From NCBI RefSeq assembly GCF_000766945.1, contig NZ_KN266212.1:140796-204795 (forward strand): a stretch of 64,000 bases of DNA, read 5' to 3'. Below are positions 7,819 through 24,303 of this stretch, in pieces. The translations under genes and the position numbers were made by a program. Every line of letters begins with the position of its first letter. Positions within the stretch are counted from its first letter, which is position 1. The stretch comes from Cellvibrio mixtus subsp. mixtus J3-8. GTDB taxonomy: Bacteria; Pseudomonadota; Gammaproteobacteria; Pseudomonadales; Cellvibrionaceae. The notes below the pieces were generated by a model. That model was not told the DNA's origin, searched no databases, and was given only the letters and a program-made list of their open reading frames with translations.

Positions 7819-8271
7819 ATGAAATCGATTACCTCAATGAGGGGGAGGTTTGGTTTTCAGCGTGCGTTTACGTTGATCGAACTTATGATCGCGGTAGCTA
7901 TTGTGGCAATCCTTGCTGCTATCGCTTTTCCTGCCTACACCAGTTATATCGCAAAAAGCGAAATTCGCTCAGCCCAGGCTGACCTGCTGGCATTGAGCCT
8001 GAACTTTGAAAACCGCTATCAGCGCACCCTGGTTTATCCCACGTTGACTGCGGCTGAAAAAGCAAATAAAGCGGGTATTCAGGGGTATTTCAAGGGGTGG
8101 ACAACAAGTACCTCCAACTTTGAATTCAAGGTTGACGAGAGCAGTGCTTCAGTTTACAAAATTTCTGCTGTAGGTAGTGGTCGCCAGACGGGATGTACTA
8201 TCAGCCTTAACTATAAAAATGAGCGTACAACCTCTGGTTGCACATATAACCCTGGTAGTTCGTGGTTATGA
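7819..8271 (+). CDS. pilE: Type IV pilin-like protein, PilE type
   Basis: A 150-residue prepilin, probably a minor subunit of the type IV pilus. The N-terminus has a short basic leader and the class III signal (R)A-FTLIELMIAVAIVAILAAIA, with cleavage expected after Ala16 and Glu21 at position +5. The residue before the cut is Ala where Gly is usual; some prepilin peptidases tolerate this. The hydrophobic helix is followed by a pilin head with a C-terminal Cys pair (GCTISL ... GCTYNP), as in PilE of the Pseudomonas fimU-pilVWXY1Y2E cluster. AGAGG lies upstream of the ATG. It is the first gene of a five-gene operon, and its stop overlaps the fimT start (ATGA). Confidence 0.85.
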   Translation: MKSITSMRGRFGFQRAFTLIELMIAVAIVAILAAIAFPAYTSYIAKSEIRSAQADLLALSLNFENRYQRTLVYPTLTAAEKANKAGIQGYFKGWTTSTSNFEFKVDESSASVYKISAVGSGRQTGCTISLNYKNERTTSGCTYNPGSSWL

Positions 8272-8762
8272 AGCAGCAGGGCGTGACTTTAGTTGAGTTG
8301 ATGATTGTTCTTTTAATCATCGGACTTATTGCGGTTGCAGCTTCGCCATTTACTTCTGCCTGGGTGAAGGATGCAAAAGTTTCCGAAGGTGCATCAGCTG
8401 TTGAAGAGGCTATCGGTCGAGCAAAGGCTGCCGCCTTGCGCAACACCGCTCGCGTGACTGGCGACAAACCGGCGAGCAGGGTTTGTTTTAGCTCATCAGA
8501 AGTCAAAGTAGTGGTTCCCGCGACCCCAACCCAGGAAGTTAAATGCGATTTGACCCCTGTGTGGACTGCAAAACTGTCTGATGTTGTTACCGTTAAAACG
8601 TTTAAAGATAAAGACGATACGCCATCAACATGGTCGTGCAGCTGCTTTAACAATAAAGGATTAGCGATAACTGACTCAGCCAATTGCAATGAATGCAGCA
8701 CTAACCTGAATTTTAAATTTGGACACACTGGAGTTGATAGTGATGAACGCAGTTTTTACTAA
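8268..8762 (+). CDS. fimT: Minor pseudopilin, FimT/FimU (GspH) type
   Basis: A prepilin-like protein thought to help prime pilus assembly at the inner membrane. From the ATG at 8268, which overlaps the pilE stop, the leader is MKQQG and the cut would precede VTLVELMIVLLIIGLI, with Glu10 at +5. The head domain contains the GspH/FimT-like segment EGASAVEEAIGRAKAAALRN and several cysteines near the end (CSCFNNKGLAI ... NCNEC). Length and position match FimT/FimU in other pilus operons. Its 3' end overlaps pilV by 20 bp. Confidence 0.8.
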   Translation: MKQQGVTLVELMIVLLIIGLIAVAASPFTSAWVKDAKVSEGASAVEEAIGRAKAAALRNTARVTGDKPASRVCFSSSEVKVVVPATPTQEVKCDLTPVWTAKLSDVVTVKTFKDKDDTPSTWSCSCFNNKGLAITDSANCNECSTNLNFKFGHTGVDSDERSFY

Positions 8763-9228
8763 ATCATCGCAGTTGCATAAAGCGCCTGTTGAGTGCGCCT
8801 CCAAATTCACGCAATTAGGCGGGATGATGATTGAGTCTCTTGTTGGGTTGCTAATCCTTAGTGTCATTGGTGGCGGTGTAATGCATGCAACAGCGCGTAT
8901 GGCAAATACCCAACAGCAGCAGGCAGTGAATAACATTACGGTAAATCAAATGCGCAGTATGTTGGTGAATCGCACTTTTGGCGGCGCAGATTTGTGTGCG
9001 GCAGGTATTAATCCCAAAGTAAAGTTACCGGGCCAAACTGAAGAAACTGCCGTGGTAGTTAAAGGTTGCAACAACGTCAATATGGATATCACTAATGTAA
9101 AAACCGGTACTACTACGATGGTGAAACAAACGGTATCGAGTATGCGCCCTGTAGTTCTGGAGGTCGGCACCGACACTAACAAAGTACGTGTCGGGGGTGT
9201 TGAGGTGCGTGATGCGACCGCTCCATAA
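8743..9228 (+). CDS. pilV: Minor pilin, PilV type
   Basis: A 161-residue prepilin-like protein with an unusually long leader (~26 residues) before LGGMMIESLVGLLILS, where the Glu is at +5 if the cut falls between the two glycines. It resembles PilV: the hydrophobic N-helix is followed by a stretch typical of this subunit (QQQAVNNITVNQMRSML). GGAG lies about 9 nt before the ATG at 8743. The in-frame ATG at 8719 is less well placed. It overlaps fimT upstream and pilW downstream, so translation is probably coupled. Confidence 0.72.
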   Translation: MNAVFTKSSQLHKAPVECASKFTQLGGMMIESLVGLLILSVIGGGVMHATARMANTQQQQAVNNITVNQMRSMLVNRTFGGADLCAAGINPKVKLPGQTEETAVVVKGCNNVNMDITNVKTGTTTMVKQTVSSMRPVVLEVGTDTNKVRVGGVEVRDATAP

Positions 9229-9892
9229 GCAGTTTTTTCTCTTCCAAAAAGGCATATCACTGATTAGTTTGATGGTGGGATTATTACTGGCCATGATCAG
9301 TATTCTCGCCGGTATGTTGCTTTACAAAAATATCGTGCAATCCTCAGTACAGGCACGTAGTGATGCTTTGCAAGATGGCCAGATTGCATCGGCGATGCTT
9401 ACTTTGCAATTGGAGCTGCAAAGTGCAGGCTATGGCATTGCAAAAGACCCCACCACGACGCATGTGCAATTGGTTGATGGCAAGACTCTTTATTGGCGAT
9501 TCAAAGATGGTTCTGCTCAATGCAGAAGTTTCCGTATCGAAGACAATGATGCGGGTACTCATCGCAAATTGGTGTTGCTCAAACTCACATCAGGTTGTGA
9601 TGAAACATCTGCGCTTAATTCATTTAGCTGGAATGATGCCGATAAAGTCGAAATAAATCCGCTTGCCGAGTTTCGTAAATCGGATGCAACTGCAGTGGAT
9701 TTACCGGTTATTACTATTGATTCTGTTGCGCCAGCTTCATGTTTCCCTTACGGCATGGGGACCAAGGGGGTACATCCTCTGGTAACCATCACCGCTGACA
9801 ACGCAGCCATTACTGCAGCTAAGAAAATTGATGCAACAGCGGCAGGGCCTAACGCGCCATTTCGCTATGATTTTTGTTTATCCAACCTTTAA
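9212..9892 (+). CDS. pilW: Minor pilin, PilW type
   Basis: A 226-residue PilW-like protein, expected at or near the pilus tip. The N-terminus reads FQKG-ISLISLMVGLLLAM, so the residue at +5 is Ser, not the conserved Glu. The body has the usual PilW features: LELQSAGYGIA after the helix, a Cys in QCRSFRI, and a later Cys pair. GAGGTGCGTG precedes the ATG. The start overlaps the pilV end by 17 bp and the gene is followed by the large PilX-like gene. The missing Glu5 is noteworthy, because Glu5 normally pairs with the N-terminus of the neighbouring subunit. Confidence 0.78.
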   Translation: MRPLHKQFFLFQKGISLISLMVGLLLAMISILAGMLLYKNIVQSSVQARSDALQDGQIASAMLTLQLELQSAGYGIAKDPTTTHVQLVDGKTLYWRFKDGSAQCRSFRIEDNDAGTHRKLVLLKLTSGCDETSALNSFSWNDADKVEINPLAEFRKSDATAVDLPVITIDSVAPASCFPYGMGTKGVHPLVTITADNAAITAAKKIDATAAGPNAPFRYDFCLSNL

Positions 9893-9915
9893 TTTCCACA
9901 TGTCGAGCAGACGCT

Positions 9916-12234
9916 ATGAAAACGATTAAAGCAGCATTAGGAATTGGTGTTCGTCGTGCGAGTCAGCGCAAGCAATCTGGTGTGGCCACTATTTTGGTCA
10001 TTTTAATGGTGGGGGTAGGCCTGGTCGCAGTGTCAGTCGGCACCATGCATACCATGCGCAACACCCAGGAGCGTCAGTTGGTAGCGCATTCACAGATTAA
10101 TGCACAGGCCGGTGCTTGGGCGGCAGTGGAGACGGTACGCCAGCTGTTGGGTACGTTAACGGCAGACCAACTGGCGGGTTTGGTCATAGATAATGAATGG
10201 ACTATCAGCGGAGTGGGGGTCAATGGCCTAACACAGAAAGCTGTTGTTAAGGCTGTTGTCCCACCGGCTGCCTCCAAGACCGATTATAAAATCAGGGTTT
10301 TGGTTAGTGCGGTGGCTGAAGCTGGACAGTCTTCATCAACTGTTGAGGTGGTTTATGAAGTGGTACCGGGGGCAGCGGCTGACCCCTTTGAGTTGACGGG
10401 GGTACTGGATTTTTACAACGATCTCGAGATGAGTGGCCATATGGATCTCAAGAGTCCTGATGCAGGGTTGAGCTTTAATGTCGATGGAGACTTTAATGCA
10501 ACTAGTCTTAGCATTGGCGGATCAGGGCTCAAAAAAATGGCTGTGACAGGCAATATAACTGTTGGATCAGATATTCGCGTTGAAGAGTTGTGGGCAAAAA
10601 ATGTCACGATCGTCGGTGGCGCAAGTGCTACAAAAGTTTTCGCGTTTGGTGATCCTGATGCAACGGATGATACCTGTTGCGGTAATGTCAAAATGACCGG
10701 AGGAACTGGTGTAACACAAATCAATGCTAATGGATCAGTTGATTCTGGAGGCAGTGGTGTTGATGAAATAAATGCGCGTCGCAATATCAGCATTACTCGT
10801 GGCGGCAGCAATCACAAGCGACTTACTGCTGGCGGTACGGTAACTAATACATCTGGAGGAAACATCACTGAGTTCATTAAATCGATAGGTGATGTAACCC
10901 TTAGTGGTGTGACTATGACTGGCTCTCCAGGTGTTGTTTCAAAGGGAAACGTAACAAATAGTGGTAGTGCGACTGTTAATAAAATTACTGCACTTGGTGG
11001 CGTTACTGTTCATTCAAATGGAACTGTCAATAATATTAAATCAGGCGGCAATGTTTCTCTGAATAACGTAGATACTAAAAACGTCGAAGCCGTAGGTGAT
11101 ATTACATGCCCTCCCGGCGTCTCAACAATCTACGAAAACCTTAAAGCTGGCGGTACAATTAAAGACTGTAAACCCACTTGGGACACTACACCCAAACCTA
11201 CTTGGTTTCAAAAAGCCAAGGTGGACATGCCTGTGGTGGACATCACTATTCCTGACAAAATACCCAAAGTTAAATTAGATCAGCCTAAAGTTAATGCGTG
11301 GTTGTTGCGCTCTCAAGCGAATTACGCACTGGAAATTAATGCTGATGGCGTGCCTCAGGTCACTGTGAAAAGTGTACATGATGTGGCTGATGGAACATAT
11401 TTTTTGCGCCCTGTAAGCGGCTCAGATACCGATAGGGAGTTTTTGTGTAAGACCCTCACCGCAGACCGTAAATTGTGTGCGGCCAAAAGCCCCAGTACTC
11501 CTGTTCATGCATTCTGCTATGGTGAAAGTGATAAGAACTCTTGTATTTCCTTCACTGTTGCCGATGGCACATCTATTGATGCCAAAGGGGAAAAAATACG
11601 CGATAAATTCATTATTGGTGGTAAAACCCTGGTTCCCGGGGTGGTTTGGATTAAAGGTGATGTGGTATTAAATAATGGGACCTACTACAACACCATTATT
11701 GCTACTGGTGATGTATCAACTTCCGGCACTGTAGTTTCTTACGCACTGAATTACGCTGCAGCTTATGAGAAACTAGACTCTGGTGTTTCCAAAAATGCAG
11801 TTTGTAAACTCGAATATGCAAACACTGCTGCTGCTGCGGCATTTTCAGGTCAGTATCCAACTAATTATTGCGTCGAAGGGAAATATGTATCTAATCCCGT
11901 GGGGAATATCGGCATTTTGGCGGGTGGTTACAATCCCGCAGATGCAGATATTTACACCGGTGGATATATCAATCTGGCAGCAAGTAACGCTATTTACGGT
12001 ACTATTGTGTCGGGAAATATTCTGGAAACAGGTGGGAGTACGCACGTCTATGGATACATTTCTGCGGCTGGCTTGAAACAAAACGAGGATGAAAAAAATA
12101 AATTAACGCAAAGTACCACTGTTGATTTAACTAACCTGCCGGAAGGTTATGACCCCACAAAAATTCCTGACATGAGTGGTGGAAGCTCTGGTGCCACCGC
12201 CAAATCCGAAGTCCTCTGGAGCCGCTACCTCTAA
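9916..12234 (+). CDS. Very large PilX-like pilus protein with beta-helix-like repeats
   Basis: From the ATG at 9916 (GAGCAG upstream) the product is 772 residues, against roughly 150-200 for ordinary PilX. The first ~110 residues are PilX-like: a basic leader, SG-VATILVILMVGVGLVAVSVG, then an Arg/Gln-rich helix; the +5 residue is Leu. From about residue 150 to 430 the sequence is a run of short repeats of the type G-N-(V/I)-T-x-x-G, Val/Gly/Asn/Ser rich, like a right-handed beta-helix or bactofilin fold. A segment with several cysteines follows (about 480-690). A second beta-rich repeat ends in IYGTIVSGNILETGG. No PilY1 gene is present, so this protein may serve as the tip adhesin. It is last in the operon, followed by a strong terminator. 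Confidence 0.75.
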   Translation: MKTIKAALGIGVRRASQRKQSGVATILVILMVGVGLVAVSVGTMHTMRNTQERQLVAHSQINAQAGAWAAVETVRQLLGTLTADQLAGLVIDNEWTISGVGVNGLTQKAVVKAVVPPAASKTDYKIRVLVSAVAEAGQSSSTVEVVYEVVPGAAADPFELTGVLDFYNDLEMSGHMDLKSPDAGLSFNVDGDFNATSLSIGGSGLKKMAVTGNITVGSDIRVEELWAKNVTIVGGASATKVFAFGDPDATDDTCCGNVKMTGGTGVTQINANGSVDSGGSGVDEINARRNISITRGGSNHKRLTAGGTVTNTSGGNITEFIKSIGDVTLSGVTMTGSPGVVSKGNVTNSGSATVNKITALGGVTVHSNGTVNNIKSGGNVSLNNVDTKNVEAVGDITCPPGVSTIYENLKAGGTIKDCKPTWDTTPKPTWFQKAKVDMPVVDITIPDKIPKVKLDQPKVNAWLLRSQANYALEINADGVPQVTVKSVHDVADGTYFLRPVSGSDTDREFLCKTLTADRKLCAAKSPSTPVHAFCYGESDKNSCISFTVADGTSIDAKGEKIRDKFIIGGKTLVPGVVWIKGDVVLNNGTYYNTIIATGDVSTSGTVVSYALNYAAAYEKLDSGVSKNAVCKLEYANTAAAAAFSGQYPTNYCVEGKYVSNPVGNIGILAGGYNPADADIYTGGYINLAASNAIYGTIVSGNILETGGSTHVYGYISAAGLKQNEDEKNKLTQSTTVDLTNLPEGYDPTKIPDMSGGSSGATAKSEVLWSRYL

Positions 12235-12491: not shown

Positions 12492-13745
12492 ATGAGTAAT
12501 AGCTATTCCAGCGGGAATTCAACCGCATCCTATTCGTCCCCGACAACGGCTGGAAACACATCCTTATTGGGAATAAGTGTTGCAGTGGGTGTGATCGCCA
12601 TAGTGGCATTGGGGGCGATTTTCAGTGGCTCGCTTTCCTTTGTCTGGAAATTACTACTGGCACTGGCAGTAGTTGCGGCGGCGATTTTTACCTGGATACA
12701 GGCATCGGCTGCCCTCAAGCAAGTAGAGGCGCTGCAAGCAGAATTGAAGCGTGCGCAGTTCGAACAGCAACTAACCCAAACCTACAAAACCCTGCTGGAA
12801 AATTACCAACAATTATTAAAAGACTTATTGCCCACCTGGCAGCGCCAAACCGAGCTGGCACGTCATCAACTAGAGTCAAGCATCACTGAACTGGTGGGGC
12901 GTTTTTCAGAAATCCACCAGCGGTTGCAAGCCGCGGTTGCAAGCTCTTCAACTACCGCAAGCAGCATGAAAGGCGATACAGGTTTGGGTGGTGTTATTCA
13001 ATTTGCCAATGCTGAGCTCGGACAAATCACCCAAACCCTGCGCGCGGCGATGGAGCAGCGCGATGATTTACTGACTGAAATTTCCGGTTTATCAAAAATC
13101 ACCGTCGAACTTAGCGGCATGAGTGCGGAGGTTGCGGGCATTGCATCACAAACCAATTTGCTTGCGCTCAACGCGGCAATCGAAGCGGCCCGCGCTGGCG
13201 AATATGGGCGTGGTTTCGCTGTCGTTGCTGATGAGGTTCGCACCTTGTCTACTCGCTCGGGTGAAACCGGTGCGCGCATTGGTAAACGCATTGAGCAAGT
13301 GAATTCCGCTTTGCAAACCACTTTGGATAGAACCACTGAATACGCCGCGCAAGACAGTAATCGCTTGAGTAAATCCGAAGGCTCTATCGCTCAGGTCCTC
13401 GAGCAATTCCAGCACTCCAGTGAAAGCATTTTGCAATCTGCACATGTGCTTGAACAAGAAAGCGCTGCGGTGCAATCCAGCGTGGAGGAAGTATTGGTGA
13501 ATTTGCAATTCCAGGATCGTGTCAGCCAGATCCTGAGTCACGTTACCGATGATATGGAAAAACTGGTAGGCGCTGTCGCTGATCAGGAAACACGTTTGCG
13601 CCATGGTGAATCAGTGACGCTCATTGATATTCAGGAATGGCTGCGCGCTATACAAAAAACCTACACCACGCTCGAACAAGTGGATGTGCATCACGGATCG
13701 CATCACTCTAAAACGCCGAGCAATTCTGAAATTACGTTCTTTTAG
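12492..13745 (+). CDS. Methyl-accepting chemotaxis-type receptor with a CheZ-like C-terminal motif
   Basis: A 417-residue receptor with two close transmembrane helices (about 27-46 and 52-72) and almost no periplasmic loop, so any input is cytoplasmic or membrane-borne. A coiled coil (75-150) leads to the signalling hairpin with the conserved tip at 217-250 ([20 protein letters not shown]). After the hairpin the sequence has [11 protein letters not shown] (338-348). Its D342-x3-Q346 matches the catalytic D-x3-Q of the CheZ phosphatase, whose motif reads FQDLTGQVI. The tail ends in SEITFF after a His/Ser-rich stretch. No separate cheZ exists in the cluster, and cheY starts 9 bp downstream. The phosphatase role is inference. 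The gene position resembles cttP next to the Pseudomonas che2 genes. Confidence 0.8.
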
Positions 13746-13754
13746 GAGCAGTGA

Positions 13755-14117
13755 ATGTCTAAAGTTATTTTGGTTGTTGATGATTCTGCCAGTGTTCGTC
13801 AAGTAGTGGGAATTGCGTTGCGCGGTGCCGGTTATACCGTAGTAGAGGCGAATGATGGCAAAGATGCGTTAACCAAACTGGATGGCCAAAAAATTAACCT
13901 GGTGATTTCTGATGTGAACATGCCAAATATGGACGGCATCAGCTTTTTGAAAGAAATGAAACAAAAAGCCAATTACAAATTTACGCCCGTAATCATGCTC
14001 ACTACTGAGGGTGCCGAAGAGAAAAAACGCGAGGGGCAAGCCGCAGGTGCGAAAGCCTGGATTGTAAAACCTTTTCGCCCCGAGCAAATGCTCCAGGCCG
14101 TTTCGATGCTGATCTAA
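13755..14117 (+). CDS. cheY: Chemotaxis response regulator CheY
   Basis: A 120-residue single receiver domain. Asp9 and Asp10 form the acid pocket, Asp53 is the phosphoacceptor (VISDVNMPNMDG), Thr83/Thr84 the switch residue and Lys105 the invariant lysine (VKPF). It is expected to be phosphorylated by the adjacent CheA and to diffuse to an output target. Since the cluster has no flagellar genes, the target may not be the flagellar motor. AGGAG lies before the ATG, 9 bp after the receptor stop. Confidence 0.95.
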   Translation: MSKVILVVDDSASVRQVVGIALRGAGYTVVEANDGKDALTKLDGQKINLVISDVNMPNMDGISFLKEMKQKANYKFTPVIMLTTEGAEEKKREGQAAGAKAWIVKPFRPEQMLQAVSMLI

Positions 14118-14441: not shown

Positions 14442-16640
14442 ATGAATCTTGACGGTGCCTTGCAGACATTCTTCGCCGAGGCGGAGGACTTATTGAATTC
14501 AATGGAGGCTGCCTTATTGCGTCTGGACGAAGGCGATAAGGATATGGAAACCATCAATGAAATTTTTCGCGCAGCACATACCATTAAAGGTTCTGCGGGT
14601 TTATTTGGTTTGAACGATATCGTGAGTTTTACTCACATCGTGGAAAATGTGCTTGATCGCGCGCGCGATGAAAAAATCACTGTGAGTGGCGATTTACTCA
14701 GCATCTTATTACCTTGTCGGGATCACATTGCCGTACTGGTAGAAAATGCCATGCACGAACGCGCGAATGATGAAACCTGCCTTGCACAAGGGCAAGCGTT
14801 ACTCGATGCATTAAAACCCTGGCTTGGCGTTGCGGCAGCACCTGTCATTGCCAAACAAGAAAGCAATGCAAGCGCGGGTTTTTTTGATGGTAATACGGGA
14901 GGCTCGTCTGATCGCGACTCCTGGCATATTTCGGTGCGCTTTGGGCCGGATCTATTGCGCAACGGCATGGACCCGTTTTCGATTTTGCGTTTTTTACGCA
15001 CGCTGGGTGAAATCACCCACATCACCACTATTACTGAACACCTGCCAGAGTTTAATGATTTTGATCCGGAGCAACTGTACCTGGGTTTTGAAATTACTTT
15101 GGGCAGTAATGCCAGCCAGCAGCAAATTGAAGATGCGTTTATGTTTGTGCGCGAAGAATCTTCAATCAAAATTATTCCACCGCGCAGTAATATCTATGCT
15201 TTTGTTAATTTAATCCAGTCATTGCCGGAAAATGCCCAGCGGCTTGGTGAAATCCTGGTGAAAAGCCATGCAATCACTTATCAGGAGCTTGAGGCTGCAT
15301 TAGCCACCCAGAAAAACCAGGCGAAAGCACTTGGTAAAGTGGGCATGCTTGGCGATATTTTAATTGAAGAACAGGCGGTGGCCCCGGAAATTGTCAATGC
15401 CGCATTGGATAAACAGAAAAAAAACAACGAGAAAAAATCCAGTCCTGAAAATCGGTTTATTCGTGTTGACGCCGAGCGTTTGGACAAATTAATTAATTTG
15501 ATTGGCGAGTTGGTGATCAATCGCCAGCGTGTTGATTTGCTCGCGTCCAAAATGGGTAATCCAACCCTGATTGAAGCGGTAACGTCCATGGGGAATTTTA
15601 CCGAGGCAATTCGCGATGCGGCACTTACGCTACGCATGGTGCCAATTGGCGATACCTTCCAGAAATTCAAACGCGTAGTGCGCGATACCGCCAAATCGCT
15701 TAACAAAGAAATTGAATTGGAAATTGAAGGTGCAGAGACCGAGCTGGACCGTTCAATGGTGGAAAAATTAAATGATCCGCTAATGCATATTGTGCGTAAT
15801 GCAATGGATCACGGTATTGAATCCATTTCCGTGCGGCAAGCGCGTAACAAGCCGGATAGCGGTACCATCAAACTGACTGCGCGCCACGATGCAGGCAATA
15901 TTGTGATTGGTATTCACGACGATGGTGGTGGCCTTGATGTGGAAAAAATTCGCAAGAAAGCGATCACTAATGGTTTGATCGAAGAGGGTGTGCATCTTTC
16001 ACGGCAGGAATTGTTCCAGTTGATTTTCCATCCCGGTTTATCAACCGCCGAACAAGTGACTAACTTGTCAGGGCGGGGTGTCGGCATGGACGTCGTAAAA
16101 CGCAATATCGAAGAGCTGCAAGGCGGTATTGAAATTGAAAGTGAAATGGGGGTGGGAACGAGCTTGAGTATTCGCTTGCCGCTTACGCTGGCGATTATTG
16201 ATGGCTTTCATGTTACGGCGGGTAATATTGATTTTATTGTGCCGCAAAATACGATTCTCGAATGTGTGGACTTAAATTCGCTGAATCATGTGCAGGGGCA
16301 AAATTGTGTAAATCTGCGCGGCGACCAGGTTCCTTATATTCGCTTGCGTGAAATTTTTTCGTTGCAACCGGGTAACCACAGCCGTGAAAAAATTGTAGTT
16401 GTTCAATTTGGTGAAAAACGTGCGGGCATTGTTGTCGATGAATTGCACGGTGAAATTCAAACCGTTGTAAAGCCCATGGGCCCTATTTTCCAGGCGCTGA
16501 AGGGGATCGGCGGTTCAAGTCTTTTAGGCACAGGTGCGGTTGCACTGATTTTGGATATCCAGCAATTAATCAGTTTTGCAATTAACCGCGAACATCTCCG
16601 TAACAATGCCTTTTCAGTCAACATCCAGGAGCAGGAATAA
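14442..16640 (+). CDS. cheA: Chemosensory histidine kinase CheA with a tandem MshEN-like motif
   Basis: A 732-residue kinase. The Hpt domain is at 1-110 with phosphorylated His46 (AAHTIKGSAGLFG). A CheY/CheB-binding-like region follows (160-248). The stretch 267-325 holds two copies of a 24-residue pattern: RLG..LV at 267-273 with Leu283, Leu287 and Gln290, then LG..LI at 303-308 with Val318, Leu322 and Gln325. This matches the MshEN consensus of c-di-GMP-binding secretion ATPases except that the mid-motif Gly is His or Gln. Next come the dimerisation helices (~337-415), the ATPase core (N-box with Asn453, DDGGG at 493-497, GRGVGMD at 544-550) and the CheW-like regulatory domain (~585-725). 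Its stop abuts the cheW start. c-di-GMP binding is inference. Confidence 0.93.
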   Translation: MNLDGALQTFFAEAEDLLNSMEAALLRLDEGDKDMETINEIFRAAHTIKGSAGLFGLNDIVSFTHIVENVLDRARDEKITVSGDLLSILLPCRDHIAVLVENAMHERANDETCLAQGQALLDALKPWLGVAAAPVIAKQESNASAGFFDGNTGGSSDRDSWHISVRFGPDLLRNGMDPFSILRFLRTLGEITHITTITEHLPEFNDFDPEQLYLGFEITLGSNASQQQIEDAFMFVREESSIKIIPPRSNIYAFVNLIQSLPENAQRLGEILVKSHAITYQELEAALATQKNQAKALGKVGMLGDILIEEQAVAPEIVNAALDKQKKNNEKKSSPENRFIRVDAERLDKLINLIGELVINRQRVDLLASKMGNPTLIEAVTSMGNFTEAIRDAALTLRMVPIGDTFQKFKRVVRDTAKSLNKEIELEIEGAETELDRSMVEKLNDPLMHIVRNAMDHGIESISVRQARNKPDSGTIKLTARHDAGNIVIGIHDDGGGLDVEKIRKKAITNGLIEEGVHLSRQELFQLIFHPGLSTAEQVTNLSGRGVGMDVVKRNIEELQGGIEIESEMGVGTSLSIRLPLTLAIIDGFHVTAGNIDFIVPQNTILECVDLNSLNHVQGQNCVNLRGDQVPYIRLREIFSLQPGNHSREKIVVVQFGEKRAGIVVDELHGEIQTVVKPMGPIFQALKGIGGSSLLGTGAVALILDIQQLISFAINREHLRNNAFSVNIQEQE

Positions 16641-17178: not shown

Positions 17179-18849
17179 GTGTTAGCCAATTTAACCTTGA
17201 GGTCCAAAATATTGTTGCTCAGCGCCCTGATTATTATAGGGTTGTGTGTGCTGGGTGGCTCCGCCTACTTACAACTTCGCCAGTTCAACGCAATTGTTGA
17301 TGAGACCAATGTGCACGTGCAGCGTCGCGCGGATATTTTGGGTGAGATTCAAGGTTCCGCTATCACGTTTAAAACCCAGGTACAGGAATGGAAAAATATC
17401 CTTATCCGCGGTAACGAACCGGAACAGTTTGTGAAATATGCCGATGGTTTTAACCTCGCCGAAAAAACTGTACAAAACCATTTGTCCAAGGCGATGGCAT
17501 TGCAAAAAGCAGAGGGCATTGCAACGGAAGCGATTGAAAAACTGCAGGCAGAGCATGCGAACCTCGGAAAAAATTACCGTAATGCATTAAGCAATTTTGA
17601 ACAGGATCAACCCAATACCGGCAAAGCAGTTGATAAACAAGTCAGTGGAATGGACCGCGAGACAGCGTCCCAGATGGAAGCGCTGGCCGCTGCAACCAAA
17701 ACCGGTTTTGAGCAGTATTTGCATGATTCGGATAACAAAACCGAAGCCGTTTATAACAGGACCGTAAATATTCTGGTCATCATTTGTGTTGTCGCATCGG
17801 CCACTATTATCGGGACTATGGTAATTATTTTTCGCGATATGTTTAAAACCCTTGGCGGCGAACCTGCGTATACAGCTGATGTAGTGTCGCAAGTGGCCAA
17901 TGGTTATCTCAATATTGATATCCAGCTCAAGCACGGTGACCAAAGTTCATTGCTGGCCAGTGTGGCCAATATGCGCAAACAACTTGCTGAAATTATTGGC
18001 GATGTGCGCAGTTCGGCCGACGCCTTGTCATCGGCCTCGGAAGAAGTGAACGCAACCGCGCAATCGCTGGCAAAAGGCGCGTCGATACAAGCGGCGAGTG
18101 TCGAAGAAACGTCTGCGTCAATGGAACAAATGTCAGCATCTATTTCACAAAACAGTGAGAACGCAAAAATTACCGATGGCATGGCTCAAAAAGCGGCGAA
18201 CGATGCCGCAACTGGCGGTGAAGCGGTAATGAATACAGTGCAAGCCATGCAAAAAATTGCCGAGCGTATCAGTGTGGTTGATGACATTGCTTACCAAACT
18301 AATTTGCTCGCCTTGAATGCGGCGATTGAAGCCGGGCGTGCAGGTGAACATGGCCGCGGGTTTGCTGTTGTAGCGTCTGAAGTTCGCAAACTCGCCGAAC
18401 GCAGCCAGGTTGCAGCACAGGAAATCGGGACCTTGGCATTAGATACGGTGAGACGCGCTGAAACAGCGGGAACAATGCTTAACAATATGGTGCCAGCGAT
18501 TCGCAAAACTGCCGATCTGGTACAAGAAATTGCGGCCGCTTCTTCCGAACAAAACGCTGGCGTTGCACAAATTAACGGAGCCATTGGCCAGGTAAGCCAA
18601 ACCTTGCAACAAAATGCCGCAGCATCGGAAGAACTCAGTTCGACTTCCGAAGAGATGAGCGCGCAGGCAATCCGGCTGCAGGAATCGATGACCTATTTCA
18701 AGTTACACGCGGGAGCGGCTAAGAATTCATTTAAAAAAACATCTTCCACGACATCACCCAAACCATCCGGTCCTGGCCCTAAAAAAATCACTGCACAACG
18801 TGTAGCCAGTGGTGATGACCTGGATGATAACTTTGTACGCTTTAACTGA
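17179..18849 (+). CDS. Methyl-accepting chemotaxis receptor, four-helix-bundle type, first of a tandem pair
   Basis: A 556-residue receptor with a GTG start behind GGGAG. The first transmembrane helix is at about 12-32 and the second at 193-215. Between them is a mostly helical periplasmic domain of ~160 residues, probably a four-helix bundle; the ligand is unknown. A HAMP-like linker starts at [12 protein letters not shown]. The signalling hairpin tip has the conserved segment [20 protein letters not shown], with methylation helices on either side. A Ser/Pro/Lys-rich linker ends in [11 protein letters not shown]. The cytoplasmic half is almost the same as in the next gene, while the sensor domains differ. 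Confidence 0.93.
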
Positions 18850-18909
18850 TAAAAATTGCCTGATTAATGTATCGGGAATTTGTGATCAAAGATCTTAATG
18901 GAGCTAAAC

Positions 18910-20544
18910 ATGACTGTTGCAAAAAAAATGCTATTGCTGGTCGCTACTGCGGTGCTGGGAATAATTATTCTGTCTGGCGCTGCCCAGGTGCAAATTAACA
19001 CTGTGTTTGAACAAGCAAATTACAGCAATGAAAATGTTATACCAAGTATGAGTTTGCTCGCGGAAATTCAAAGCAGTGTTTATCGTTTCCGGATTCGCCT
19101 GAGTCGCTTTGTATTAAATACGGATCAAACGCAAATAGAAAAGCTGGAAATCGACTTAAATAAAGCGATGGCCGATGCACGCAATGGTTTAAAAAAATAT
19201 GAAACCTATTTGTCCTCGGATAAGGATCGGGAGCTGTTTTCGGCCGATAAAAAATTCTTCGATAGTTTTGTAGGACACTTGCCGGAAATTCTCGCCGCTG
19301 CAAAAAAAGGCCAAACCGATGCCGCGCTCGCATTAATGGAAAAATCCGGAGATGATGCACGAGCTCTCGCTACGGCATTGGAAAATCACTCTGCGTATAA
19401 TATGGAATTGGCTGATAATGCCAAAAATAATGCATTGGCAACCAAATCAAAAGCGGCATTAATTTCAATCATTATTTCTATCGTTACACTACTTGCTATT
19501 GCACTAATCGGTTTTTTCATTGCGCGCAACCTGCTTCGCCAGCTTGGCGGTGAACCTGATTACGCAGCGGCAGTTGTGGCCAAAATTGCCAGTGGCGATT
19601 TAACCCAGCAAGTGAACACCAGGCCGGGTGATACTACCAGCATGCTCGCGGCGATTCGGGAAATGTCGACGTCCTTATCGCAAGTGCTGGGGGAAGTGCG
19701 CAGTTCGGCTGATGCGTTGGCTTCGGCTTCCGAGGAAGTAAATGCAACCGCGCAATCGCTGGCGAAAGGCGCCTCGGTTCAAGCGGCGAGCGTGGAGGAA
19801 ACCTCGGCATCAATGGAACAAATGTCAGCGTCCATTATGCAAAACAATGAAAACGCCAGTATCACTGATGGCATGGCCCAAAAAGCGGCGGCAGATGCAG
19901 CAACCGGTGGCAGCGCTGTTGCCAGCACCGTAGAGGCAATGCAGAAAATTGCGGATCGTATCAGCGTCATTGATGACATTGCCTATCAAACCAATTTGCT
20001 TGCGCTGAACGCCGCGATTGAAGCAGGGCGCGCGGGCGAGCACGGCCGTGGTTTTGCGGTGGTTGCCTCGGAAGTGCGCAAGCTTGCTGAGCGCAGCCAG
20101 GTCGCCGCACAGGAAATTGGTTCGCTGGCTGGTGAGACCGTTAGCAAAGCCGACAATGCGGGCAAACTCTTGCAGGAAATGGTGCCGAGTATTCGTAAAA
20201 CGGCTGATCTGGTACAGGAAATTTCCGCAGCTTCGTCCGAGCAAACAGCGGGAGTTAATCAAATTAATGCCGCGATTGGCCAGGTAAGCCAAACCATGCA
20301 ACAAAACGCAGCGGCTGCCGAAGAATTAAGTTCAACCTCGGAGGAACTGAGTTCACAGGCGATGCGACTGCAAGATGCAGTGAGTTATTTCACATTGTCT
20401 GTTGAAGATTCCCGCAGCAATTTTGCACGTAGTTCGCGCGCTACGCCTGCACAACCTGTTACGCCAACCCGTGCAAAAAAACCTGCAACAAAACCGACAC
20501 CGAGTGACGATGACCTTGACAAGGATTTTGTGCGTTATACCTGA
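18910..20544 (+). CDS. Methyl-accepting chemotaxis receptor, second of a tandem pair
   Basis: A 544-residue receptor from the ATG at 18910, which has GGAG 8 nt upstream; the ATG at 18898 lacks a site. Transmembrane helices are at about 5-25 and 185-207, flanking a helical periplasmic domain rich in charged residues and unlike that of its neighbour. The HAMP-like segment [20 protein letters not shown] is followed by the signalling hairpin ([20 protein letters not shown]). A Pro/Thr/Lys-rich linker ends in [12 protein letters not shown]. The gene clearly arose with its upstream neighbour by duplication, followed by replacement or divergence of the sensor. Confidence 0.93.
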
Positions 20545-20611
20545 CGCGCGGTGTTTATGATGAGCAGAATAAAAATATTATGTATAACGATCAGCAGGGG
20601 TGATGGTGATT

Positions 20612-21433
20612 ATGTCCGCGGATAACGCAACTCCAATTCCTACTGATCAGGAGTTCCAATTATTCCAGCAGCTCATTCAGCAAAAGCTGGGTATTTTTTT
20701 GCCCGTGCAAAAAAAAGCGTTATTGAGCAACCGTTTGTGGAAGCGGTTGCAGGCCTGCGATTTAAAAGGTTTTGGTGAATATTATCGTTTTATCCAAAGT
20801 CCGCAGGGGCGTGGTGAATTAAGCACAGCGCTGGAATTAATTACTACTAACGAAACGTATTTTTTTCGCGAACAAAAACATTTTGATTATTTGCAGGATG
20901 AAATCCTGCCCAATTATCGCCCTGGCCATAGTTTCCGGGTTTGGAGTGCAGCGTCGTCAACCGGTGAAGAACCTTACAGTATTGCAATGGTATTGAAAGA
21001 CCGTTGCAACTGCGATTGGGAACTACTGTGTTCCGATGTAAATCGTACGGTAGTAGAGCAGGCGAAAATCGGGATATACCCGGATATGCGCGTGCGCAAT
21101 ATTCCGCCGGAATATTTGCGCCGTTTTTGCCGTAAAGGTGTTGGCCCGCAAACTGGCAATGTAAGGGTGATTGCCGAATTGCGCCAGGCAGTGCAGTTTT
21201 TTACGCTCAACCTGCATGAAGATTTCCCTGATCTGGGGAAATTCGATCTGGTATTCCTGCGCAACGTTTTAATTTATTTTGAAAATGACAACAAAACCAA
21301 AATCCTGGAGCGGATTGCTGACAAGCTGAATCCTGGTGGCATTTTATTTGTGGGTCACTCCGAGAGCCTGCACGGAATCAGTAACCGCTTTGTTCCTGTA
21401 AAACCGGCTATTTACAGGCTGGTCGGGCGTTAA
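20612..21433 (+). CDS. cheR: Chemotaxis protein methyltransferase CheR
   Basis: Methylates receptor glutamates with S-adenosylmethionine. The product is 273 residues from the ATG at 20612; an in-frame ATG lies at 20600. The N-terminal helical domain is followed by the catalytic domain, with TTNETYFFRE at the start, the SAM-binding segment RVWSAASSTGEEPYSIAM, and LVFLRNVLIYFE. The end (LFVGHSESLHGISNRFVPV) is characteristic of the family. It has no TPR extension. cheD starts three bases after its stop. Confidence 0.95.
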   Translation: MSADNATPIPTDQEFQLFQQLIQQKLGIFLPVQKKALLSNRLWKRLQACDLKGFGEYYRFIQSPQGRGELSTALELITTNETYFFREQKHFDYLQDEILPNYRPGHSFRVWSAASSTGEEPYSIAMVLKDRCNCDWELLCSDVNRTVVEQAKIGIYPDMRVRNIPPEYLRRFCRKGVGPQTGNVRVIAELRQAVQFFTLNLHEDFPDLGKFDLVFLRNVLIYFENDNKTKILERIADKLNPGGILFVGHSESLHGISNRFVPVKPAIYRLVGR

Positions 21434-21436
21434 TGA

Positions 21437-21919
21437 ATGATTGCTGCTCCTGAATCAAAACCGCTGCACAGTATTCATCCCGGTGAGTGGTATTTCGGTA
21501 CTGAATATGAGCGCTTGCACACCGTGCTGGGCTCTTGTGTAGCTTTGACTGCCTGGCACCCGAAGCTGAGGCTGGGAGGGCTTTGCCATTATCTGCTGGC
21601 AAAAATGCCCGAGCAAAAATTACCGGGACGCGATTGTCGCTACGCGGCCAATGCCCTTGAGCAGATGAAACTGGCGATGATGTCGTTTGCCAATCCTTCA
21701 GAATTTGAGTTGGGCGTGTTTGGTGGCGGTGATATGTTTGCTTACATCACTGCCACTTCCATCGGTACAGACAATATCCAATTTGCACGCAATTGGTTGA
21801 TGCGCGAAAAATTAAAACCATTGCATGTGGATGTCGGTGGAAAGATTTCGCGTTCCCTCACGCTGATTATATCTACCGGGGAAATCCAGCTAAAACATTA
21901 TCAAATGAATGCCGGTTAA
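21437..21919 (+). CDS. cheD: Receptor glutamine deamidase CheD
   Basis: A 160-residue CheD. It deamidates receptor glutamines to methylatable glutamates and in some bacteria activates CheC. The catalytic Cys sits in TVLGSCVALTAW and the His in GGLCHYLL; a third family motif is FGGGDMF. The gene follows cheR with a 3-bp gap. No cheC is present. The 118-bp gap to cheB contains no evident gene. Confidence 0.93.
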   Translation: MIAAPESKPLHSIHPGEWYFGTEYERLHTVLGSCVALTAWHPKLRLGGLCHYLLAKMPEQKLPGRDCRYAANALEQMKLAMMSFANPSEFELGVFGGGDMFAYITATSIGTDNIQFARNWLMREKLKPLHVDVGGKISRSLTLIISTGEIQLKHYQMNAG

Positions 21920-22036
21920 GTTGTTGAAAAGCCGCGCTTATCGACAATACTTGGTGAAGTCGCGCAGCGTGAGTATTAACACGCGCAAGCCAATTTGTGT
22001 AAGCACAAGCCAAACCTATGTAGAAGTTGAGATGCT

Positions 22037-23083
22037 ATGACTATTAATGTGCTGGTGGTGGATGATTCAGCCGTGGTGCGCCAGGTACTGAGCGGTGTTC
22101 TCAACGAGGCACCGGATATCAGTGTCTATGCCACTGCGTCTGATCCCATATTTGCGCAGCAACAGATGCAAAAAAAATGGCCGGATGTGGTGTTGCTGGA
22201 TATAGAAATGCCGCGCATGGATGGCCTGACATTTTTGCGGCAATTAATGCAGGAGCGGCCAACACCGGTAATTATTTGTTCTTCGCTGGCCGAAAAAGGT
22301 GCAGAGCTAACGTTGCAAGCATTGGCCGCCGGCGCCATTGATATCATCACCAAACCGCAATTGGGTGTGAAAGATTTTTTACTCGAAGCCAAGCATTTGT
22401 TGTGGCAAACCGTACGCGGTGCAGCGGGTGCCCATGTATCGCGCCGTGCATCGGTAGCCGATAAAAAACCGGCTGCGGTTGCTGCACCAGCGGCTGATCT
22501 GGTCGCTATGACGGCGACTACCGATACTATTATTGTCATCGGCACATCGACTGGTGGTACCCAGGCGCTGGAAGAAATCCTTAGTAAGATTCCGCGTACT
22601 TGTCCGGGCATCGCTGTGGTGCAACACATGCCGGAAAAGTTCACCGCTGCGTTTGCAAAACGCCTTGATGGGCTCTGTGAAGTGGATGTAAAAGAAGCGG
22701 AGAGCGGTGATCGTTTAATTCCCGGGCGTGTATTAATTGCACCAGGCGGGCATCACCTGGAGGTACAGCGTTCGGGGGCCCAGTATATTGCCAAGGTTTT
22801 TCGCGGACCGAGTGTGAATCGCCATTGTCCTTCTGTGGATGTGTTGTTTCGTTCGGCTGCGCGCTACGCAGGTCGCAACGCCATGGGAATTATTATGACC
22901 GGCATGGGTGATGATGGCGCGCGCGGGCTATTGGAAATGCGCCAGGTTGGTTGCAGGACTATTGCACAGGATGAGCAATCCTGTGTTGTATTTGGGATGC
23001 CCAAAGAAGCGATTAACATGGGCGCCGCAAAAGAAATTATGCCATTGTCGCAAATCCCGGCAGTGTTGGGAGGCAAGGCATGA
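22037..23083 (+). CDS. cheB: Chemotaxis response regulator protein-glutamate methylesterase CheB
   Basis: A 348-residue two-domain enzyme that removes receptor methyl groups. The receiver domain has Asp9/Asp10 and phosphoacceptor Asp55 ([12 protein letters not shown]). After an Ala/Pro linker (~128-160) the methylesterase domain has Ser171 in [10 protein letters not shown], His197 in VVQHMPEKF and the catalytic Asp in [11 protein letters not shown]. The stop overlaps the start of the REC-EAL gene (ATGA), which indicates co-expression. Confidence 0.96.
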
Positions 23084-24303
23084 AGTCTGTGATTTCCGAA
23101 TTGAGCGTGCTGGTGACTGACGACAGCCTCACCCAGCGCCAGTACGCCATGGACCTGTGCCAGGAACTGGGCGTGCAAGCTTTATTTGATGCAGCCAATG
23201 GTGTCGATGCATTGGACGTGTTGGATACAAACAGCGTCGATGTTGTATTAATTGACCTGGAAATGCCGATCATGGATGGGGTGGAATTAATTCGCTCCAT
23301 CGCGCAAAAAAAATTAAATAGCAGTGTCATTATCCTCAGTGCAAAAGATCCTATTCTTATCGCCAGCGTAGGCACTATGGCCGAGGCTGATGGTCTGCAT
23401 GTGTTGGGAACTTTTCAAAAACCATTGTTGCCTGATGCCCTGGAGTGCAGTTTGTTGCGCTTTATCCAGGACACTAAAGTGGCGGCAGAGCCAAAAAAAT
23501 CAAACGATACAGAAGTTACCGCCCTGGAACTCAGCCATGCGTTGGCGAACAACGAATTAACCCTTGCGTTTCAGCCCAAGTTGACCGTGCATGGATTATT
23601 ATTGCGCGGCGTAGAAGCATTGGCCCGCTGGCGCCATCCTGCCAAGGGCATGATATCGCCGGTAGTATTTATTGAATTGGCAGAACGCCACGGGATGATC
23701 GATGCGCTTACGCATTTTTTATTAGAAGAAGCATTCAAACACAAACGCACCTGGCAACAGTATGGATTGCGTTTCCATCTCGCATTTAATTTATCGCCAT
23801 TGTCGCTCGCCGATTCTGACATGGTAGATTGGTTGTGCAAGATGGCTGAAAAGTACGGTATTGCGCCTGCCGAAATTACCTTTGAAGTGACCGAGAATGC
23901 CTTATTGGGCGAATTGGCCAGTGCGATACGTACGCTCGCGCGTTTGCGGTTAAAAGGTTTCCATATCGCTATTGATGATTACGGCACTGGTTTTGCGAAC
24001 GCCCAGCAATTATCGCGCGTGCCGGCCACAGAATTAAAAATTGATCGCTCTCTGGTTCATCGCGCTGCAGCCCGACCACAACAGCGAACCATTCTTGCGA
24101 GCACCATCGACCTGGCCAAAAACCTGAATCTCACTACGGTTGCGGAAGGTGTGGAGACCGCAGAAGATTTCAAAATCCTCTACGATTTGGGTGTAGATCT
24201 GGTACAAGGTTATTATTTTTCCAAACCGCTTTTCGCTGATGATCTATTGAATTGGGTTAAGAATGATTTGAGTCAGCTGCGCCGCCAACAGGAACAAAAA
24301 TAA
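23080..24303 (+). CDS. Response regulator with EAL c-di-GMP phosphodiesterase domain
   Basis: A 407-residue output protein. The receiver domain (~8-130) has phosphoacceptor Asp59 ([11 protein letters not shown]) and the conserved Lys in FQKPL. The EAL domain (~148-400) keeps the catalytic and metal-binding signatures: GVEAL with Glu179, [39 protein letters not shown] and QGYYFSKP. I therefore predict active hydrolysis of c-di-GMP to pGpG. It overlaps cheB by 4 bp and is the last gene of the cluster. CheA is the probable phosphodonor, so the array may control c-di-GMP. The activity is inferred from intact motifs. Confidence 0.92.

What the first reader, a model, noticed from the sequence alone, without database searches (positions are those of the whole stretch)
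15240..15416. Tandem MshEN-like (c-di-GMP-binding) motif inside CheA
CheA residues 267-290 and 302-325 each fit the 24-residue pattern RLGxxLVxxGxxxxxxLxxxLxxQ of MshEN domains, which bind c-di-GMP in pilus and secretion ATPases. All key positions of the first copy match except Gly (His here). The second has Leu-Gly, Leu, Ile, Val, Leu and Gln, with Met at the first position and Gln for the Gly. The spacer is 11 residues, against about 5 in known proteins. I do not know of a chemosensory kinase described with this domain. It would let the array read c-di-GMP, while the same operon encodes a c-di-GMP phosphodiesterase.
Basis: partly seen in the sequence, partly recalled or inferred. Interest (0 to 1): 0.78.

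Follow-up and report, generated by a model that had tools for sequence, protein, structure and literature searches.

The report
MshEN-type c-di-GMP domain inside CheA
A chemotaxis control kinase from a Cellvibrio-like bacterium carries a domain related to known receptors for the messenger c-di-GMP; relatives across several phyla share it, the pairing was listed in print in 2016, and whether it really binds the messenger is untested.

Summary
CheA (window 14442-16640, 732 aa) has two MshEN-type half-motifs at residues 267-290 and 302-325, with an 11-residue spacer, between a P2-like domain and the P3 dimerisation domain. Pfam's MshEN model misses it, but NCBIfam NF053729 (c-di-GMP_motif) passes its cut-off (50.3 against 38 bits) and matches 80 of 80 aligned CheA fragments at E <= 0.001. 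A profile of these fragments finds PilF (2e-20), PilB (3e-9) and MshE (3.5e-7) in the PDB. The predicted fold's first four matches are c-di-GMP-bound PilF and MshE, though with Foldseek E of 0.3-0.6. Among 80 CheAs exactly five of 59 columns are invariant, all five ligand contacts in MshE. The Arg of motif II is mostly gone (R in 7 of 80), here too. Most likely this is a genuine c-di-GMP-responsive module in a class of CheA; binding is inferred, not shown. My searches found no follow-up, and a 2023 CheA domain survey does not mention it in its main text.

The parts
14442..16640 (+). cheA, 732 aa, MshEN-bearing chemosensory histidine kinase
   Evidence: ORF; Pfam Hpt, H-kinase_dim, HATPase_c and CheW all over cut-off
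14460..14702 (+). P1 (Hpt) domain, residues 7-87
   Evidence: PF01627 E 1e-16
14922..15155 (+). P2-like domain, residues 161-238 (sub-threshold)
   Evidence: PF07194 E 0.059, 13.9 bits against cut-off 23; model has strands and helices here; Foldseek rows are mostly ferredoxin-like folds (fold name recalled)
15240..15311 (+). MshEN half-motif I, residues 267-290; contact set R L G L L Q complete, turn Gly is His
15312..15344 (+). 11-residue spacer, residues 291-301
   Evidence: 5-22 in 80 rows
15345..15416 (+). MshEN half-motif II, residues 302-325; contact set M L G V L Q (Arg lost, one Leu to Val)
15453..15626 (+). P3 dimerisation domain, residues 338-395, after a short linker of lower model confidence
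   Evidence: PF02895 E 7.4e-13
15774..16187 (+). P4 kinase domain, residues 445-582
   Evidence: PF02518 E 7.1e-16
16206..16574 (+). P5 (CheW-like) domain, residues 589-711
   Evidence: PF01584 E 4.7e-23
12492..13745 (+). chemoreceptor-like protein upstream (MCPsignal)
   Evidence: a protein matching it lies somewhere in 77 of 80 named loci, upstream of cheA in most printed rows but in a few only downstream
13755..14117 (+). cheY-like receiver gene
   Evidence: PF00072
16641..17150 (+). cheW
17179..20544 (+). two chemoreceptor genes (17179-18849, 18898-20544)
20600..23083 (+). cheR (20600-21433), cheD (21437-21919), cheB (22037-23083)
23080..24303 (+). REC-EAL response regulator, likely c-di-GMP phosphodiesterase; start overlaps the cheB stop
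   Evidence: PF00563 E 2e-70 and PF00072 E 5e-16; sequence keeps EAL, DDY, K and E motif residues (read by eye, motif roles recalled)

Best explanation
The pair is a true MshEN N-subdomain (four-helix c-di-GMP module) built into the P2-P3 junction of one of the genome's four CheA-type kinases. I propose that c-di-GMP binds across the two half-motifs: motif I holds one guanine canonically, and motif II holds the other with Leu, Gly, Val, Leu and Gln but without the stacking Arg. Binding would change the packing or freedom of the P1-P2 arm relative to the P3 dimer and so tune autophosphorylation or phosphotransfer. Since the operon encodes a REC-EAL protein, CheA could also set local c-di-GMP and read it back. 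Shown here: domain homology, predicted fold, conservation of contact residues across the nearer part of the class, operon content. Inferred: binding, direction of the effect, feedback.
For: NF053729 over cut-off in the window protein and matched by 80 of 80 fragments at E <= 0.001. Profile hits to PilF 2e-20, PilB 3e-9 and MshE 3.5e-7 (the MshE stretch covers motif I only). AF2 model with short-long-short-long helices (pLDDT 76, block means 85-93 there); the first four Foldseek rows (three entries) are c-di-GMP-bound PilF and MshE, probability 0.99-1.00, with 1.4 A over 62 columns to MshE. Five of five invariant columns (of 59) are MshE ligand contacts, G11 L29 Q32 G40 Q61 (hypergeometric 1.6e-4; the same five in 57 representatives under 70% identity; contact roles from PMC5013675 passages). 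The two Gln keep 80 of 80. In a tree of 51 CheAs most pair-bearing rows form one clade that also holds three rows without the pair at separate places, as expected of an accessory regulatory module. 45 of 45 genomes searched, of the 80 named loci, hold EAL proteins. REC-EAL follows cheB in 14 of 20 regions round relatives' CheA.
Against: No binding data. Motif II Arg is R in only 7 of 80 rows and Met here; the turn Gly is lost in both motifs of the window. Pfam MshEN (PF05157) matches 0 of 80 fragments. Foldseek E-values were 0.3-0.6, none at or below 0.001, and for the P2-MshEN-P3 model no MshEN structure is among the 50 rows shown. Related short-spacer CheAs have lost the end of helix 2 and the first Gln (28 of 60 rows), so the fold can persist without a full site. 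REC-EAL is absent near the CheA in 3 regions that reach far enough (L193, L195, L196) and in named loci with 1.4 kb or more beyond cheB such as L138, L155 and L162. The hypergeometric test treats columns as independent, and the rows were chosen by similarity to the window protein (best 80 of 585).
Confidence: 0.62

Rival explanations
1. A degenerate MshEN fold that no longer binds c-di-GMP and serves as a spacer or protein docking surface between P2 and P3, as XpsE/GspE of Xanthomonas kept the fold but lost binding.
For: Motif II position 1 is not Arg in 73 of 80 rows and the turn Gly is variable. In short-spacer CheAs the first Gln and helix end are gone in 28 of 60 rows while the fold core stays. 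PMC5013675 section 12 warns that such changes abolish binding in some MshEN domains.
Against: In the nearer 80 CheAs both Gln, both Gly and one Leu contact are invariant. Of the XpsE losses at contact positions (G11V, L29R, R38G, G40L, L54H, L58C, Q61V) the window has none as such; R38 is Met and L54 is Val. PMC5013675 section 10 reports that changes of Arg9, Asp12 and Gln32 did not seem to change affinity more than fivefold.
Confidence: 0.28
2. Chance resemblance: helical leucine-rich linker that happens to fit a loose pattern.
For: Pfam finds nothing significant in the window fragment.
Against: NF053729 E 1.6e-13, 80 of 80 fragments, PDB profile hits, matching fold.
Confidence: 0.02
3. A nucleotide receptor for a ligand other than c-di-GMP, such as 3',3'-cGAMP.
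For: PMC5013675 passages report weak cGAMP binding by MshEN; the altered motif II could relax the need for a second guanine.
Against: Backbone contacts that read guanine come from the Gly positions, invariant in both motifs. No cGAMP enzyme was searched for.
Confidence: 0.06

Closest known systems
MshEN_N domain of Vibrio cholerae MshE (PDB 5HTL; PMC5013675)
   Same: two 24-residue half-motifs, four helices, both Gln, both RLG-type Gly, hydrophobic clusters; profile E 3.5e-7 and 1.4 A over 62 columns
   Different: host protein is a kinase; spacer 11 not 5; motif II Arg is Met and one Leu is Val; only 12 residues lie between motif II and P3, so no room for a MshEN_C subdomain there
GSPII domains of Thermus PilF (PDB 6f8l, 8pkz, 9glg)
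   Same: best profile match, E 2e-20, and first Foldseek rows, c-di-GMP bound
   Different: repeated domains of a pilus ATPase
MshEN-CheA fusions listed by Wang et al. 2016 (PMC5013675 section 12)
   Same: MshEN domain in chemotaxis kinase CheA
   Different: one line in a list; the supplementary table was not open to me, so I cannot say which CheAs or whether this subclass is among them
CheA domain classes of Berry et al. 2023 (PMC10782961)
   Same: P1-P2-P3-P4-P5 core
   Different: auxiliary domains named in section 11 are P2, CheY-like and CheC/CheX; MshE, T2SSE and c-di-GMP occur 0 times in the main text
CheA-Pch of Pseudomonas aeruginosa (review PMC10212136, passages only)
   Same: a CheA coupled to a c-di-GMP phosphodiesterase
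   Different: there CheA recruits and controls the enzyme; no c-di-GMP-binding domain in CheA is mentioned in the passages seen

Membership tests
MshEN c-di-GMP-binding domain | significant match to a curated MshEN/c-di-GMP motif profile | tested here: met
   NF053729 50.3 bits, cut-off 38. Against: Pfam PF05157 not matched
MshEN c-di-GMP-binding domain | tandem pair of 24-residue half-motifs | tested here: met
   residues 267-290 and 302-325 (two stretches)
MshEN c-di-GMP-binding domain | spacer of 5 residues between half-motifs | tested here: not met
   11 here; 5-22 in 80 related CheAs, 5 in two of them. A loop length, not a ligand contact
MshEN c-di-GMP-binding domain | contact residues R, L, G, L, L, Q in both motifs | tested here: inconclusive
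   10 of 12 identical, Val for Leu 54 conservative, Met for Arg 38 not
MshEN c-di-GMP-binding domain | four-helix MshEN_N fold | tested here: met
   helices; first four rows MshE/PilF, probability 0.99-1.00, but E 0.3-0.6; prediction, not a solved structure
MshEN c-di-GMP-binding domain | binds c-di-GMP | not testable with these tools
   needs protein and ITC, DSF or DRaCALA
CheA | P1, P3, P4 and P5 core domains | tested here: met
   all four over Pfam cut-offs
CheA | genetic setting with MCP, CheW, CheY, CheR, CheB | tested here: met

The most novel reading that the evidence does not exclude
A whole class of chemosensory kinases, seen here in Proteobacteria and in single or paired records labelled Spirochaetes, Thermodesulfovibrio and Virgisporangium, is itself a c-di-GMP receptor: an Arg-less second half-site tunes its affinity, and in Cellvibrio and Duganella-like bacteria the same array drives a REC-EAL phosphodiesterase, which would make a closed chemosensing/c-di-GMP feedback loop.
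Probability: 0.33. Interest if true: 0.7.

Novelty: new member of a known kind. Interest (0 to 1): 0.48.

Why it matters
The links between c-di-GMP and chemotaxis that I know of act through adaptors, receptors or the motor (recalled; a c-di-GMP-binding receptor title in the listing, and adaptor-CheR titles in reference-list passages). A receptor module in the kinase itself would let the cell's c-di-GMP level gate a whole array at one point. The conservation found here makes that testable with one protein fragment and a few substitutions. It also shows that Pfam's MshEN model is blind to this version of the domain (0 of 80).

Tried and rejected
Chance similarity was rejected. TAL-effector rows at the top of the single-sequence PDB search were rejected: they are sums of many sub-threshold repeat matches, and none is among the 15 sequences of the profile search. 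DUF4388, matched by 21 of 80 fragments at best E 3.9e-5 in Pfam, was noted and not followed up. The VIA-align library was not available, so there is no second structural score. The P2-MshEN-P3 model search printed mostly ferredoxin-like folds and did not help with the MshEN part. I tried to tie the domain to a neighbouring EAL gene across the class. In the named loci a CheB match is present in only 34 of 80 and few reach far beyond it, so 9 of 80 loci with an EAL match is a lower bound and not a test; L138, L155 and L162 reach 1.4 kb or more past cheB without one. A search of 45 of the 80 named loci's genomes for EAL showed only that all 45 have EAL proteins. Rows dropped before counts: L076 (the frame recovered lacks the region) and L171 (it lacks the pair).

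Full report
What is there. The window holds a chemosensory operon: MCP (12492), CheY-like receiver (13755), CheA (14442-16640), CheW, two MCPs, CheR, CheD, CheB and a REC-EAL protein (23080-24303). CheA has P1, P3, P4 and P5 over Pfam cut-offs and a sub-threshold P2. The genome has three other H-kinase_dim matches. The nearest named relative is Cellvibrio sp. 79, 99% over the queried stretch (which notes that records of the window's own genome may be left out), so the organism is probably a Cellvibrio.

The observation. NCBIfam NF053729, 'cyclic di-GMP-binding domain-containing protein, MshE-related', scores 50.3 bits against a cut-off of 38 with two stretches. Pfam's MshEN model gives no hit in this CheA nor in any of the 80 aligned fragments at E <= 0.01, whereas NF053729 matches 80 of 80 at E <= 0.001. 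In the same genome PF05157 finds three other places and NF053729 finds nine, two of them in this CheA.

Homology and fold. A profile of the 80 fragments against PDB sequences gives Thermus PilF 2e-20, PilB 3e-9 and 1.1e-8, MshE 5htl 3.5e-7 (stretch over motif I only) and the PilF c-di-GMP-binding domain 7.1e-6. AlphaFold2 on residues 255-345 gives helices short-long-short-long (pLDDT 76.3). The first four Foldseek rows, from three entries, are c-di-GMP-bound PilF-GSPIIB and MshE, probability 0.99-1.00, 1.4 A over 62 columns with MshE; but E-values are 0.3-0.6. In a larger model (residues 155-400) the same helices are predicted with block means of 85-93, with a drop to 61 in the linker before P3. 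That model's Foldseek list shows mostly ferredoxin-like folds, matching the P2 part, and no MshEN row among the 50 printed.

How widespread. A profile of the pair plus P3 was run over 398 genomes of the phylum. By my count of the printed rows, 59 matches in 55 of 398 genomes cover the profile from position 1-6 to 157-158, while the other printed rows start at position 26 or later, mostly 54-78, i.e. P3 without the full pair; not all rows are printed. Named loci include Aeromonas, Pseudomonas, Duganella, Dechloromonas, Methylobacter, two Spirochaetes MAGs, a Thermodesulfovibrio MAG and Virgisporangium. A tree of 51 P3-P5 sequences that I picked puts 40 rows (29 long-spacer, 8 short-spacer, 3 without the pair) in one clade (support 100/97). 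The three without the pair (L037, L039, L171) sit at separate places inside it, which reads as three losses, though not every fork there is well supported; two further pair-bearing rows (L093, L095, spacer 6) lie outside it with ordinary CheAs. The module thus seems old in one CheA class and dispensable for the kinase.

Is the ligand site kept? From PMC5013675 (passages; sections 10 and 12 read) the contacts are R, L, G of the first turn, two Leu and the last Gln of each motif. In 80 rows (79 named loci plus window; L171 left out) five of 59 columns are invariant: Gly 269, Leu 287, Gln 290, Gly 304, Gln 325, all contacts. The chance of five out of five is 1.6e-4 if columns are exchangeable, 4.6e-4 within the 48 motif positions, and the same five are invariant in 57 representatives below 70% identity. 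The window scores 11 of 12 contact positions when Leu may be Ile, Val or Met and Arg may be Lys. Against a full site: position 1 is R in 60 of 80 in motif I but in 7 of 80 in motif II (Pro 35), and the motif II turn Gly is kept in 30 of 80. In a broader set of 60 pair-bearing CheAs, motif I lacks positions 22-24, Gln included, in 28 of 60; motif II keeps Gln in 60 of 60. So I expect the window's subclass to bind and many short-spacer members not to.

Operon link. In 20 fetched regions round the CheA of relatives, a REC-EAL relative follows cheB in 14, is absent in 3 that reach at least 3.9 kb past cheB (L193, L195, L196), and cannot be judged in 3 that end too early (L181, L183, L194). In the named loci it also follows cheB in L111, L116, L117 and L123 (Duganella, Rugamonas), while L138, L155 and L162 reach 1.4 kb or more past cheB without it.

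What is known. [quoted passage not shown] its supplementary tables were not open to me. Searches: MshEN with CheA (27 papers, 20 listed), with c-di-GMP added (12 of 12 listed), CheA with c-di-GMP binding and arrays (62 papers, 15 listed), 'cyclic di-GMP' with 'binds CheA' (none), MshEN with chemotaxis and kinase (24 papers, 15 listed) and T2SSE_N with CheA (4 of 4 listed). Among what was listed I saw no experimental study of such a CheA. These cover open-licence papers only; of PMC12943098, PMC10212136, PMC12564702, PMC10519070, PMC7288161, PMC5812497 and PMC11656802 I saw passages, of the rest the listing. The 2023 CheA survey PMC10782961 (outline, sections 11 and 15, passages) names P2, CheY-like and CheC/CheX as auxiliary domains and has 0 occurrences of MshE, T2SSE or c-di-GMP in its main text.

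Verdict. The feature is real and correctly recognised; the fusion was already listed in print. Binding and regulation remain to be shown.

Noticed in passing
window 7819-12234: A run of type IV pilin-like genes (prepilin-type N termini in several ORFs, read by eye) lies directly upstream of the chemosensory operon; not analysed.
   Followed up: no
L006:46-1605 (-) and L009:1465-2307 (+), same genome: Two other proteins (519 and 280 aa) match only NF053729 among NCBIfam families at E <= 1e-4; both have a motif II without Arg and a spacer that I count as 17-18 residues, so long-spacer, Arg-less pairs are not confined to CheA.
   Followed up: partly
short-spacer rows (for example L067, L082): CheAs in which the two half-motifs are joined almost without spacer and the first Gln is missing (28 of 60 rows); probably a non-binding relic or a different use.
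   Followed up: partly
L037, L039, L171: CheAs of the same clade in which the module is eroded or gone, including one from the window's own genus (L039).
   Followed up: yes
L093, L095: Two pair-bearing CheAs (spacer 6) outside the main clade: possible second acquisition.
   Followed up: partly
L176: The CheA in a Virgisporangium (actinomycete) record sits among proteobacterial ones in the tree, suggesting horizontal transfer.
   Followed up: no
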